Source: Xenococcus sp. PCC 7305
GTDB taxonomy: Bacteria; Cyanobacteriota; Cyanobacteriia; Cyanobacteriales; Xenococcaceae
Direction of reading: 5' to 3'
DNA length: 64,000 bases
Assembly: GCF_000332055.1 (NCBI RefSeq)
Contig: NZ_ALVZ01000222.1
Coordinates: 1-64,000 of the forward strand
The stretch's first letter is position 1; every line of letters starts with the position of its first letter. Shown here one piece after another: positions 47,196 through 51,893 of this stretch. Position numbers and translations under genes: made by a program. The notes under the pieces were generated by a model that was not told where the DNA came from, searched no databases, and saw nothing but the letters and a program-made list of their open reading frames with translations.

Positions 47196-48485
47196 TTATT
47201 CTGAGAGAATACTGAGAGAAACTGTTTCTCCATCGGTCAGAGTTTCGCCTGCACGAAGAACGAATTTTTCCTGGGATTTGATTCCTGTTTTAATCGCAAC
47301 TTTTCCCTTCGAGCGATCGCGAATACGAATTTCTCTTTTACTGACAACTCCTTGATTAACGGCAAGCTCTTCTTGGCTCACAACAAAAATATAGTTTTTT
47401 TCCGCTTCTTCGACAATGGCGAACTCAGGGATAATAACGTCAGTAGCAATATTGGCAACTAGAGTGACTCTAGCAAGAAGCCCCCCTTTTATTTGGCTTT
47501 GGGGATTAGAAACTATTACTTCTATAGGGATTTTGCGAGTACTAGAATCAGCAGCAGGCGCTATCCGACTAATTCTGCCAGTGAATTTGCGATCGCCAAA
47601 AGCATCAAAGGTGACAGTAACAGATTTTCCTAACCTAATTTGTCCCAAATCCAATTCAGAGAGTGGAACAACTACTTTAATCTGGCTAAAGTCGCCAATC
47701 TCAATAATTTCTTCCCCTTGTCTGATTAAATTACCTGGTTCATTGATTTTTGTGATCACAATTCCCGTTGCGGGGGCAATTAATTGGCTATAGGACTGAC
47801 GTTGAGTAGCCTCGGCGATCGCCTCCATTTGGGAAGCTACTTGCCCCATACTGGTTGTGACTGCTTGCTGGGCAATTTTAATTGACTCGGTGGCAACTAA
47901 AACCGTTTTCTGAGCAAGTTCGGCGGTGGTTTGAAAAGATTCGGCTTCCTGGGATGAGATGAGTCCTTGACTTGCCAAGTTACTATATCGCTGAGCATCG
48001 TTTTTTGCCTGTTCTAATCTCAGCAAAGATTCTTCTAAGGCGATTTCTGAGTTTTTCACTCTAATTTTGGCACTGGCTAATTCCGATTCTAGACTGGCAA
48101 GCTCTGCTTTTTCTCGATTGACCGCCGCAGTCAATAAACTACTATCTAGTCTGCCGATTACTTGGCCTTTGGTAACTCTCTGTCCTACTTCTACGGTTAA
48201 ATCTAATAACTTCCCCTCAACTTGCGATCGCAATAAAGTTTCTCTGATCGCTTCGCTGGTGCCAATATACTCTCTAGCATCACGAAGAGTCCCTAACTTC
48301 GCGATCACCACATCTACCTTAGTAAGTTGTGATTGAGCAAATTGCGATTTCTCTGTCGAGGAAACAGTTTGATTATCAGAAGAAGCAGAACTAGAGCTCA
48401 GAGAATTAAGACTACAGCCTCCTACTGCACAGAGAGCAATCAACAGTAAACCATTGAGATATCTTGATTTTGCCCTATTTTTCAT
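47196..48485 (-). CDS. RND efflux periplasmic adaptor (HlyD/AcrA type), lipoprotein
   Basis: The 429-residue protein has a lipobox AVGGCS (Cys24), so it should be anchored by lipid. Paired lipoyl half-motifs (LLDLTVEVGQRVTKGQVIGRL and PATGIVITKINEPGNLIRQGE) flank a long coiled-coil hairpin, then a beta-barrel domain. It would link an inner-membrane pump to an outer-membrane channel; no pump gene lies beside it. Its start overlaps the end of the next upstream gene by 11 bp, so the two are probably co-expressed. Confidence 0.87.
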   Translation of the reverse strand: MKNRAKSRYLNGLLLIALCAVGGCSLNSLSSSSASSDNQTVSSTEKSQFAQSQLTKVDVVIAKLGTLRDAREYIGTSEAIRETLLRSQVEGKLLDLTVEVGQRVTKGQVIGRLDSSLLTAAVNREKAELASLESELASAKIRVKNSEIALEESLLRLEQAKNDAQRYSNLASQGLISSQEAESFQTTAELAQKTVLVATESIKIAQQAVTTSMGQVASQMEAIAEATQRQSYSQLIAPATGIVITKINEPGNLIRQGEEIIEIGDFSQIKVVVPLSELDLGQIRLGKSVTVTFDAFGDRKFTGRISRIAPAADSSTRKIPIEVIVSNPQSQIKGGLLARVTLVANIATDVIIPEFAIVEEAEKNYIFVVSQEELAVNQGVVSKREIRIRDRSKGKVAIKTGIKSQEKFVLRAGETLTDGETVSLSILSE

Positions 48486-49137
48486 TATCTTCTGGGGAAA
48501 TTCCAGCCAATGCTAAAGATTTTAGTTTGTCAAAGAAAGCAGAGTCATCAAAAATAGGATTAAAGTTCGTAATTGTTGCGGATTGATTGGAAGATTGATG
48601 ATTGTCCCCAAATTTGGTCTTTGGTTGCTGCTCCTTTTCAGAGAGACTTAACGAAGAATATTGAGAATGTATGGATGAAGATTCTGTATTGAAATATGTT
48701 TCGGAAGAAGAATAACTAGTCTGGGAAGACGGCAAATAATTAGAACCCGAATTGACCTTAACCTCTGTCCTATCTGGGAAAAGAGAATTTTCTGTTTCAA
48801 GCCAAAAAGGATTCGGTATGAGATATTTGGGCAATTTACGACAGATTAATCTTTCAAACTCCCCTTTGAAATGAATGTTTGGAGTGCCAATACGCAACCA
48901 GACTGCCATAATTTGCTCAATCGAGACAGACTTATACCTTCCCAAATATAAAGCTTCTATCGCAGCCAAACGAACCCAATTTCCCTGATAATCGTGAAGC
49001 CATTTTTGAACCAAATTTTCCACAGAATTGCCATTGGTCTCAAAGCTATAACTTTTAATCAACGCGATCGCCTGAGCAACCGCTAAGTCACCGTTTAACT
49101 CTGTCATGGAAGTCTTGGGCAGATCAGCTTGATTCAT
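48475..49137 (-). CDS. Unknown 220-residue protein
   Basis: No known domain. The N-terminal ~110 residues are helical with a conserved-looking segment NWVRLAAIEALYLGRYKSVS, EQIMAVWLRIG and FERLICRKLP, a pattern seen in uncharacterised cyanobacterial proteins. The C-terminal half is Ser-rich and probably disordered. ATG 49137 is used (an adjoining TTG would add one). It overlaps the HlyD-type adaptor gene by 11 bp and belongs to the same minus-strand cluster. Confidence 0.65.
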   Translation of the reverse strand: MNQADLPKTSMTELNGDLAVAQAIALIKSYSFETNGNSVENLVQKWLHDYQGNWVRLAAIEALYLGRYKSVSIEQIMAVWLRIGTPNIHFKGEFERLICRKLPKYLIPNPFWLETENSLFPDRTEVKVNSGSNYLPSSQTSYSSSETYFNTESSSIHSQYSSLSLSEKEQQPKTKFGDNHQSSNQSATITNFNPIFDDSAFFDKLKSLALAGISPEDNEK

Positions 49138-49263
49138 CAAATTCAGTCAACAGTAAACAAATGAGCAGTAACAAATCTTTATTAATCCTAAAGCGATCTT
49201 ACAAAAATGGCTAATATTTCGCTCAATAGCTTCAACAAAGACCGATCTTTCTGCCCTCTGCCT

Positions 49264-50121
49264 TCAAAATACAAACACGGCGAGTTTCTCGACGAAAAAG
49301 CTCATAGCCAGGAAAATTAGACAATAACGCAAAATCGTAACTTGTTTCTCCAAACTACTAACTGTTTTTTTTGTTCCTGTCAGCATATTATTGATTTGTT
49401 GCTGTCTTTCAAAATCCCAAGCTTGGATCTTTTCCTCTAAATTATTGGTATCAACAGTTTTATGGTTGATGCGATCGCTTAAAGACTCCAGTCCCTGTCT
49501 CATTTGATTGGTTACTTGGTACTGAAAAGTCCCTAACCCCTGACGGAATTCATTTTTGAGATGTTTAATTTGTTTATTCAACTCCAGAAACATTTCATTG
49601 CGGGTTTGTTCATTTTTGGATTTAATTTCTTGCTCTAAACGAGCAAAGTTATCTTGAGCTTTATTTTCTAACTGAAATAAATTTTTTGTGGTGTCACTAT
49701 TGTCTTGAATAAAACCCGATAATAGTTTTTCAAACAATCCTGGTCCCAGCTGAAAATATCCTCGTTGAACATAGCGAATTGTATCAGTCAATTCCGAACC
49801 AGAAGTACTTTTGAGGAGATAACCTTTAGCTCCAGCTTTCACCGCGGCATTAATGCTGTCATGATCTTCACAGGAACTGAGAATCACCACTTTGGTCTGA
49901 GAAAATTGTTGATTAATCTTTTGAGTCAGGACAAATCCATTCATTTCAGGCATCTCTAGATCTATGACTGCCACATCAGGACGCATTTCGTCAATTTTGG
50001 CCAAAGCTTTGACCCCATTTTCAGCTTGACCAATAATCTCAAAATCTGATTCTTGTTCCAAGATAGATTTGACAGCTTCTCTAGTAAAATTTTGGTCGTC
50101 GACTATTAATATGCGAATCAT
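49264..50121 (-). CDS. Receiver-domain protein with coiled coil and C-terminal membrane anchor
   Basis: The 285-residue protein (ATG 50121) has an intact receiver domain (1-120): acid pair Asp8-Asp9, phospho-acceptor Asp54 in VIDLEMPEMNG, and Lys104. No DNA-binding domain follows. Instead there is a long coiled-coil region (about 145-255) and a membrane helix at the very C-terminus (about 263-285). The receiver resembles that of the next upstream protein closely, so the two are tandem duplicates. A membrane-tethered receiver output is unusual. Confidence 0.82.
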   Translation of the reverse strand: MIRILIVDDQNFTREAVKSILEQESDFEIIGQAENGVKALAKIDEMRPDVAVIDLEMPEMNGFVLTQKINQQFSQTKVVILSSCEDHDSINAAVKAGAKGYLLKSTSGSELTDTIRYVQRGYFQLGPGLFEKLLSGFIQDNSDTTKNLFQLENKAQDNFARLEQEIKSKNEQTRNEMFLELNKQIKHLKNEFRQGLGTFQYQVTNQMRQGLESLSDRINHKTVDTNNLEEKIQAWDFERQQQINNMLTGTKKTVSSLEKQVTILRYCLIFLAMSFFVEKLAVFVF

Positions 50122-50252
50122 TTTTATCAAATATTATTATTTTATAATTTATATAGCACTTATCAAATTAGTGAGATATACAAGGCTCTGCTTTAGGGAA
50201 TCGGGAATCGGGAACTGTATCTTGTTAATCTGAGAAATGCTATAACCTATAT

Positions 50253-51893
50253 TCAATTATTAATTGATATTTGGGCAGTCAATCCGACATGACACAAATC
50301 CTGTAGCACCAGTTCTGAAGTCGCAAAATCTACATTAATAATCAGCCGATAGGAATTTTCTTTAATCTGATTGGCAACAGAAGCATTGGTAGTCCAAGTA
50401 ACGGACGGGGGATTCGTTGTTGTTTGGGGGCTATCTTGACTTAAGGCAGAAATACGACTAACCTGGCCGACGATCAAAGATTCTCGGTTTTCCAATTGAA
50501 CAGAAACATCATTTTGCAAATTAATTTTTGCCGCAGTTTTTTCATCAACGATCGCCTCAACCCAAAGCTGCTGACAATCAAGAACAGTTGCAATCTCTTG
50601 TCCTGCAGAGACTAACTCTCCTTCTTGATGGTTAATACGATAAATTGCTCCTGATATTGGAGCTTTTAGGGAAATTATTTGATTGTCAACCAAGTTTGCT
50701 TGTGTTTCCTTTAAGCTATCTTGCAAATTGGCTAATTCTTTACCCAAAAAATCAATAGTAGATCTTTGATTGAATATTTGCTGTTCCACATTAGCAATTT
50801 CGCGAGAATTATCGATGGAGATTGTAGTATTTTCAGAAATCTGGGGAATATCAAGGGCAATTATACTTTTCTGCGGTAGAACTTCCAATTGCTTTTCTAG
50901 AAAAGAGGAGAACTTTTGGGCATTATCAATTTGCTCTTGTTTAAGAATAATATCCTTTTCTAACTGGGAAATTTTCTCAGATACCTTGCTATCTTCTAAG
51001 GACTTAATAGAAGCAAAAGGTTGCTCAGCTGCCAGATTCATGCCCTCAAGATAAGCTATTTCTTGCAATGTTCCTGCTACAGGACTCTCAATGGCAACCA
51101 TTTTTCCGTTGACAACCGCGTCTTTAATGACAATAGCAGTTCCCTGTCGATAGGATATCAGGCCGGCTGCGATCACAGCCATACCTAATCCAATTAGAGT
51201 TATCTTAGAAACAGTTTGTTGCCACCAATTTTTTTGAGGAGAGGTTTCCGAGCTAGAAACCGATAAGGAATCTGCTGTGGAGATATTATCTGGTAAAGGC
51301 AAATAAGGTGGAGCAATTTTATTTTCAGTAAAAAAAGTTGGGGTCGCGTCTAAAGAAGAATTTGATAGCAGAAAATTATCACTAAAAATAATCTCTGAGT
51401 TTTGATTTTTCAGAGAATCTTGAAATTCAGCATCCGCGATCGCTAAAGTGGAAATCGCATCAGATAAATGAGGTAATACTATTTTAAAAATATTATCTTC
51501 TATATGTGTATAACCTTTGTCAATATAGCGGACTATTTCCCTAATTTTTTTGGCCGAAACATTCTTGAGAAGACAACCTTTTACTCCCAACTCCAAATAT
51601 TGAACAAAATCTGCTGCGTCAATATCGTTACAAAAAACTATTATTTTTATGTGATCTAGTTTTTTTTGTATCTGCTTAATTAAATCAAACCCATTAACTT
51701 CAGACAATGCGGTGCTGATTAGTACGATATTTGGCTTAAGCTCCTGAATATTCGCAATGGCATTACGACCTTCACTAAAACTACCAACTATTTTAATATC
51801 CGAGTTGGATTCAAGTAAGATTTTCAACCCTTCTCGAATCACCTTCTGCTCTTCTATTAAAACTACACGAATTACTGGTGCGCTAGGAATCAT
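50253..51893 (-). CDS. Receiver-like domain fused to a membrane HlyD-type adaptor
   Basis: The 546-residue protein has an N-terminal receiver-like domain (about 7-130), a Ser-rich linker, one membrane helix (about 231-248) and a periplasmic HlyD-type part: half-lipoyl motif MVAIESPVAGTLQEI (265-279), coiled coil (about 300-400), second half SLKAPISGAIYRINHQEGEL, then a barrel. In the receiver the phospho-acceptor Asp is replaced by Ser60 (VLISTALSEVNG) while the acid pair (Glu14-Glu15) and Lys110 remain, so it is a pseudo-receiver. It may sense by binding rather than by phosphorylation. RBS AGGAAG precedes the ATG. Confidence 0.8.
   Translation of the reverse strand: MIPSAPVIRVVLIEEQKVIREGLKILLESNSDIKIVGSFSEGRNAIANIQELKPNIVLISTALSEVNGFDLIKQIQKKLDHIKIIVFCNDIDAADFVQYLELGVKGCLLKNVSAKKIREIVRYIDKGYTHIEDNIFKIVLPHLSDAISTLAIADAEFQDSLKNQNSEIIFSDNFLLSNSSLDATPTFFTENKIAPPYLPLPDNISTADSLSVSSSETSPQKNWWQQTVSKITLIGLGMAVIAAGLISYRQGTAIVIKDAVVNGKMVAIESPVAGTLQEIAYLEGMNLAAEQPFASIKSLEDSKVSEKISQLEKDIILKQEQIDNAQKFSSFLEKQLEVLPQKSIIALDIPQISENTTISIDNSREIANVEQQIFNQRSTIDFLGKELANLQDSLKETQANLVDNQIISLKAPISGAIYRINHQEGELVSAGQEIATVLDCQQLWVEAIVDEKTAAKINLQNDVSVQLENRESLIVGQVSRISALSQDSPQTTTNPPSVTWTTNASVANQIKENSYRLIINVDFATSELVLQDLCHVGLTAQISINN

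What the first reader, a model, noticed from the sequence alone, without database searches (positions are those of the whole stretch)
50253..51893. Pseudo-receiver fused through one membrane helix to an HlyD-type adaptor
The phospho-acceptor Asp of the receiver is Ser60 while the acid pair and Lys110 remain; the domain is followed by a linker, a membrane helix and a full lipoyl-coiled-coil-lipoyl adaptor. A cytoplasmic signalling-like domain built directly into an efflux or secretion adaptor would allow control of export without transcription.
Basis: partly seen in the sequence, partly recalled or inferred. Interest (0 to 1): 0.72.

Follow-up and report, generated by a model that had tools for sequence, protein, structure and literature searches.

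The report
Signal domain built into export adaptor
A cyanobacterial membrane protein really does join a disabled signalling domain inside the cell to an export-machine part outside it; it turns out to be a stripped-down descendant of the adaptors that sit beside polysaccharide synthases, and cyanobacteria have fused signalling domains to such adaptors several separate times.

Summary
Window 50253-51893 (minus strand) is one intact 546-aa gene: receiver (Ser60 replaces the phospho-Asp), linker, one membrane helix, HlyD-type head. It is no assembly error: orthologues lie in 5 of 27 genomes of the family (window included), all with Ser at that site, and the pseudo-receiver is the best-conserved part. 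Two corrections. The active site is more damaged than stated (Cys88 and Cys107 replace Thr/Ser and Tyr). The adaptor is not full: in this genus the helical hairpin is about 80 residues short, and the tip that docks on TolC is gone.

A tree groups the head with adaptors that stand beside a GT2 polysaccharide synthase in 18 of 18 loci; those carry no signal domain, a degenerate EAL, or an intact receiver. None of the five genomes has that synthase. Instead a membrane-anchored true receiver (window 49264-50130) is adjacent in four and elsewhere in the fifth. Receivers were joined to HlyD-type adaptors on at least three lineages (synthase, Pel-like, type I secretion).

Best reading: a retired REC-regulated copolymerase adaptor, now a transmembrane docking subunit read by the neighbouring receiver. 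Architecture and ancestry are well supported; the mechanism is inference. Closest functional parallel: Alg44. New variant of a known kind.

The parts
50253..51893 (-). pseudo-receiver - linker - one membrane helix - HlyD-type adaptor head, 546 aa
   Evidence: RBS
51513..51872 (-). pseudo-receiver (residues 8-127): E14 E15 / S60 / C88 / C107 / K110; most conserved part of the protein
51144..51236 (-). membrane helix region (residues 220-250; hydrophobic core about 228-246)
   Evidence: hydropathy; helix 220-249 (low-confidence model)
50424..51131 (-). HlyD-type head (residues 255-490): lipoyl half, shortened hairpin without TolC-docking tip, lipoyl half, barrel
49264..50130 (-). REC-coiled coil-TM protein (RCT), intact receiver (acid pair, phospho-Asp, Ser, Tyr, Lys all kept), C-terminal membrane anchor; gene adjacent to the pseudo-receiver gene in 4 of 5 genomes and unlinked in the fifth
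48475..49140 (-). 221-aa protein without Pfam match, same strand; homologue follows RCT in G001 (L091)
47196..48485 (-). RND-type adaptor lipoprotein with intact TolC-docking motif (RYSNLASQGLIS), overlapping the previous gene by 11 bases; linkage not seen at the other class I loci

Best explanation
The protein descends from REC-TM-HlyD copolymerase adaptors that worked with a GT2 polysaccharide synthase. In this lineage (class I, five genomes of one family) the phospho-acceptor and the synthase are gone, and in this genus also the TolC-docking tip. What is kept, and kept best, is the cytoplasmic pseudo-receiver, together with a membrane-crossing periplasmic head. Most likely mechanism: the pseudo-receiver is a docking surface, not a phosphate acceptor. 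The neighbouring membrane-anchored true receiver RCT is phosphorylated by a kinase, binds or releases the pseudo-receiver at the inner face of the membrane, and the change passes through the single helix to the lipoyl/hairpin head, which sets the state of an envelope assembly partner encoded elsewhere. Shown: architecture, orthology, conserved Ser, ancestry of the head, absence of the synthase, linkage with RCT. Inferred: RCT-pseudo-receiver binding, transmission through the helix, the periplasmic partner.
For: Head groups with GT2-linked adaptors (100/99 support), apart from all other adaptors in the tree. 18 of 18 such relatives have the GT2 close by, 0 of 5 class I loci, and the GT2 is absent from all five class I genomes. 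The receiver also groups with that of the GT2-linked REC adaptor of G014 (95/93 for a set that also holds one REC-BON protein); class I plus G014 as one clade of heads is not rejected (p-AU 0.18). Ser in 5 of 5. The pseudo-receiver is 68-70% identical in two sister pairs against 44-52% for the head parts. RCT present in 5 of 5 class I genomes, adjacent in 4. Pseudo-receivers acting through a partner receiver are discussed in PMC12632262 and shown for WhiI-BldM (PMC4125116) and within PleD (as cited in PMC12632262).
Against: RCT also occurs in 15 genomes of the family without class I, often next to groEL, so it has a role without this partner, and linkage may be shared ancestry. No partner in the periplasm has been identified. 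No binding or phenotype data. The structure model was too poor to use (mean pLDDT 44). The G001 RCT gene is unlinked.
Confidence: 0.4

Rival explanations
1. Still an export adaptor: it serves an unlinked inner-membrane pump or synthase, and the pseudo-receiver gates it. The tip-bearing RND-type adaptor encoded downstream could supply the TolC contact.
For: Relatives with intact receivers sit in export operons. Downstream adaptor 47196-48485 keeps the tip motif and lies on the same strand. The genome has many GT2 domains and other pumps.
Against: No pump gene beside it. Tip lost, synthase of its relatives absent. None of eight GT2 loci examined in four class I genomes, including two in the own genome, has a neighbour that matches these adaptors. 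The downstream adaptor is not linked to class I in the other genomes.
Confidence: 0.25
2. Relic: a once REC-controlled synthase adaptor that lost its synthase, its phosphorylation site and its tip, and is drifting without function.
For: Three losses in one lineage; patchy presence, 5 of 27 genomes.
Against: Intact frames in five genomes, a clear ribosome-binding site in the window; the pseudo-receiver is the most conserved large region in both sister pairs, the opposite of drift; the same Ser in all five.
Confidence: 0.2
3. Decoy: the pseudo-receiver binds a histidine kinase or phosphorelay protein without accepting phosphate, and ties it to the membrane, so the head is only an anchor or an envelope sensor.
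For: Receiver fold, acid pair and Lys kept; pseudo-receivers as binding competitors are mentioned in PMC12632262.
Against: The head is still recognisable as a lipoyl-hairpin-barrel adaptor, more than an anchor needs; no kinase gene is seen among the neighbours listed.
Confidence: 0.12
4. Assembly or frameshift artefact joining two genes.
For: None found.
Against: Single open frame; orthologues with the same order of domains in four other genomes.
Confidence: 0.01

Closest known systems
Alg44 (alginate copolymerase of Pseudomonas: PilZ - one TM helix - membrane fusion domain)
   Same: Cytoplasmic regulatory domain, single TM, periplasmic adaptor domain in the same order (described in PMC8461298). 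The closest adaptor relatives of the window protein stand beside a GT2 synthase, as Alg44 works with Alg8.
   Different: REC or EAL instead of PilZ; no GT2 synthase of this type in the class I genomes; the GT2 of the relatives had no PDB match by sequence and no Alg8-named model match.
XcsB / cyanobacterial HlyD-like partner of cellulose synthase XcsA
   Same: HlyD-like adaptor paired with a GT2 synthase in cyanobacteria (PMC12430437).
   Different: XcsA carries PilZ itself; the two GT2s scanned here have no PilZ match, and XcsB is not described there with a signal domain.
PelD in the Pel system
   Same: Membrane-bound regulatory input of a polysaccharide machine; in cyanobacterial Pel-like operons a REC-HlyD gene stands beside PelF.
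   Different: PelD uses GAF-GGDEF and c-di-GMP and is no HlyD adaptor; the pel REC-HlyD is a separate lineage in the tree.
HlyD / RND adaptors of tripartite pumps
   Same: Lipoyl-hairpin-lipoyl-barrel head with an N-terminal membrane helix.
   Different: Cytoplasmic pseudo-receiver; no TolC-docking tip in this genus.
Aspartate-less pseudo-receivers that pair with another receiver (WhiI-BldM, PleD)
   Same: Receiver fold without a working phosphorylation site, with another receiver as known or likely partner.
   Different: Those end in DNA-binding or cyclase outputs in the cytoplasm; here the output lies in the periplasm.

Membership tests
Receiver domain (PF00072) | match to the profile over the curated cut-off | tested here: met
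   66.5 bits against 30.2
Receiver domain (PF00072), phosphorylatable | phospho-acceptor Asp, Thr/Ser, Lys and acid pair | tested here: not met
   S60, C88, K110, E14 E15
Pseudo-receiver (aspartate-less) | detected as receiver but lacks the catalytic Asp | tested here: met
   Ser in all five orthologues; definition in PMC12632262
HlyD/MFP periplasmic adaptor | HlyD family profiles, lipoyl halves around a hairpin, N-terminal membrane helix | tested here: met
HlyD/MFP periplasmic adaptor of a TolC-type pump | hairpin tip with TolC-binding RxxxLxxxxxxS motif | tested here: not met
   tip region absent in window and G001
Alg44 | PilZ domain at the N-terminus | tested here: not met
   only Response_reg found there
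Alg44 | single TM then adaptor domain | tested here: met
Alg44 | encoded with an Alg8-type GT2 synthase | tested here: not met
   none adjacent, and no relative of the L079 GT2 in the five class I genomes; GT2 linkage is met only by the sister adaptors
Type I secretion HlyD | ABC exporter encoded beside it | tested here: not met
   none in the window neighbourhood; the class with ABC exporters is a different lineage
Alg44-like control | ligand or phospho-state change activates the partner enzyme | not testable with these tools
   needs biochemistry

The most novel reading that the evidence does not exclude
A two-protein membrane switch: phosphorylation of a tail-anchored true receiver (RCT) is read by a pseudo-receiver built into a periplasmic adaptor, so that a two-component signal crosses the inner membrane outwards without any gene being transcribed.
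Probability: 0.3. Interest if true: 0.78.

Novelty: new variant of a known kind. Interest (0 to 1): 0.57.

Why it matters
Post-translational control of export through an adaptor is known mainly from the c-di-GMP receptor Alg44. Surveys reported that cyanobacteria have Alg8/BcsA-type synthases but no PilZ-HlyD Alg44 (PMC4594306; PMC4971617). The loci found here offer an answer: the same place in the protein is taken by a receiver or by a degenerate EAL domain. Receivers were joined to HlyD-type adaptors on at least three lineages, for three kinds of machine. If right, two-component signals act directly on polysaccharide synthesis and secretion in cyanobacteria, which can be tested gene by gene. 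The window protein adds a case where the receiver is disabled yet strongly conserved beside a true receiver, a test bed for how bacterial pseudo-receivers work, which PMC12632262 calls a mystery.

Tried and rejected
Assembly error or frameshift: rejected by orthologues. Type I secretion adaptor: rejected by tree and neighbourhood. All REC-HlyD proteins as one family from one fusion: rejected, p-AU 1e-47. Alg44 proper: PilZ and synthase missing. RCT as obligate partner found only with class I: rejected, RCT is in 20 of 27 family genomes. L092 as an RCT: dropped, it looks like a REC-TM-BON protein. Led nowhere: a scan of genome contigs gave only one unrelated receiver, viral contigs gave none, promoter and terminator scans were uninformative, papers on REC-HlyD fusions were not found in the held library, and GT2 loci in class I genomes had no matching adaptor beside them.

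Full report
WHAT IS THERE. The finding's coordinates hold one gene on the minus strand, 50253-51893, 546 aa, starting with ATG behind a good ribosome-binding site. The plus strand is closed by many stops. Pfam finds a receiver at residues 10-121 and HlyD-type domains, the main hits over their cut-offs. One hydrophobic helix lies at about 228-246. A structure prediction from window sequences alone was poor (mean pLDDT 44), but its secondary structure runs alternating strand and helix, then a long helix 220-249, two long helices, then strands, as expected. I draw no fold conclusion from it.

ACTIVE SITE. Aligned with CheY and the other receivers collected here, the window protein has E14-E15 at the acid pair, S60 at the phospho-Asp, C88 at the Thr/Ser, C107 at the switch aromatic and K110. 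The four orthologues have Ser at the same place: G001, G007, G012 and G025. All other cyanobacterial receivers compared keep the Asp, except a REC-BON-like protein with Asn.

NOT AN ARTEFACT. Orthologues (called class I, window included) were found in 5 of the 27 genomes held for the family; those in G001, G007 and G012 are 50, 34 and 30% identical to the window protein. The order as sampled, 391 genomes, gave no class I member outside the family (there only the top candidates per genome were scored in full). In the two sister pairs the pseudo-receiver is the most conserved large region: 68% (window/G001) and 70% (G007/G012), against 44-52% for lipoyl, hairpin and barrel parts and 20-36% for the linker. 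A dead domain would not be expected to be conserved more than the rest.

THE HEAD IS SHORTENED. Between the lipoyl halves the window protein and G001 have 107 residues, the other relatives 186-195. The TolC-binding motif RxxxLxxxxxxS at the hairpin tip (PMC3391258) is found in many adaptors of the set, including class I member G025 and the neighbouring adaptor of the window (RYSNLASQGLIS), but not in the window protein or G001. A strict pattern also misses G007, G012 and others, so the argument rests on the missing tip region more than on the motif. 'Full adaptor' is therefore wrong for this genus.

ANCESTRY OF THE HEAD. A maximum-likelihood tree of 45 adaptor heads puts class I (one clade, 96/94) with a group of adaptors next to GT2 synthases (joint clade 100/99), apart from all other adaptors sampled. 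I fetched 18 such relatives from several families and orders: all 18 have the GT2 gene close by, often with a nucleotide-sugar dehydrogenase. These were found by similarity to the adaptor, not by the GT2. Their cytoplasmic part varies: ten have none, seven an EAL domain, one (L079, G014) an intact receiver. None of the five class I loci has the GT2, and a search with the L079 GT2 finds no relative in any of the five genomes, including the 99.9% complete own genome, which holds other GT2 domains. The receiver tree also places class I near the G014 receiver, and class I plus G014 as one clade of heads is not rejected (p-AU 0.18). The simplest history is one REC fusion to a GT2-linked adaptor, followed by loss of the Asp and of the synthase.

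REC FUSIONS AROSE MORE THAN ONCE. REC-HlyD proteins with intact receivers occur in three settings: GT2 operon (L079), Pel-like operon with PelF (NCBIfam PelF 137 bits, cut-off 100) and a Spherulin4 protein (L047, L050, L053), and beside a C39-peptidase ABC exporter with a cyclic-nucleotide domain (L049, and by length and position L087, L088). The own genome has three REC-HlyD genes: the window one, one in the ABC exporter setting (C81) and one standing alone (C154). Holding all REC-bearing heads together is rejected (p-AU 1e-47), and parsimony needs five changes of the label, so at least three lineages with fusions is a cautious reading. In other families the same type I head occurs in frames too short to hold REC, which fits later addition.

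NEIGHBOURS. Downstream on the same strand lie RCT (49264-50130, intact receiver, coiled coil, C-terminal membrane helix), a 221-aa protein and an RND-type adaptor lipoprotein. The gaps are about 120 bases each, then an overlap of 11, so one transcript is possible but not shown. RCT is adjacent in G007, G012, G025 and the window, unlinked in G001 where the 221-aa homologue follows it. RCT-type genes are in 20 of 27 family genomes and were not found at the threshold in the rest of the order sample; many stand upstream of groEL. RCT is therefore likely older than the pairing.

MECHANISM. Pseudo-receivers can act through another receiver: WhiI with BldM (PMC4125116), and the receiver-pseudo-receiver pair inside PleD (cited in PMC12632262). 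Alg44 shows that a cytoplasmic domain joined by one helix to an adaptor head can control a synthase (PMC8461298). Put together, I favour a docking switch: phospho-RCT is read by the pseudo-receiver, and the head passes this to a periplasmic partner. Binding, transmission and partner are inferred. Rivals are a still-working export adaptor, a relic, and a kinase decoy.

NOVELTY. No paper found in the held library describes REC-HlyD fusions, and surveys of cyanobacteria noted the absence of PilZ-HlyD Alg44. The library is incomplete, so this is not proof. I rate it a new variant of a known kind: a signal domain on a copolymerase-type adaptor, with a receiver (here disabled) in place of PilZ.

HOW SURE (judgement). 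Architecture, orthology and ancestry: about 0.85. Class I is functional rather than a relic: about 0.75. Specific switch with RCT: about 0.3-0.4.

Noticed in passing
L080:8067-10256, L081:7794-9920, L083:119-2239, L085:7780-9900, L086:3086-5224, L150:7230-9503, L151:6641-8662: EAL-TM-HlyD adaptors beside a GT2 synthase. By eye the EAL is degenerate (DDFG is DDFA, DNFA, DDFT or DDFV; the Glu of the AEGVE motif is gone), which suggests a c-di-GMP receptor rather than an enzyme.
   Followed up: partly
L047:8231-10054, L050:8158-10014, L053:8411-10522: REC-HlyD genes with intact receivers at the head of Pel-like operons (PelF, a multi-pass protein without Pfam match, Spherulin4); relatives in 14 of 293 genomes of the order.
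   Followed up: partly
L049:2516-7527, L087:2401-7655, L088:6146-11399: REC-HlyD beside a cNMP-C39-ABC exporter; L049 also has a PPIase gene.
   Followed up: partly
L125, L129, L130, L134, L136, L137: A membrane-anchored receiver gene (RCT) stands directly upstream of a groEL gene in many genomes of this family.
   Followed up: partly
47196-48485: RND-type adaptor lipoprotein with intact TolC-docking motif and no RND pump gene next to it.
   Followed up: no
L092:9328-10338; L157:7551-8561: REC followed by TM and a BON-like part in G005, with Asn at the phospho-Asp position; a REC gene of the same length in L157.
   Followed up: no
L059:10202-11065: 287-aa receiver protein with Asn-Asn at the acid pair and a membrane helix, beside a REC-HlyD gene in G001.
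   Followed up: no
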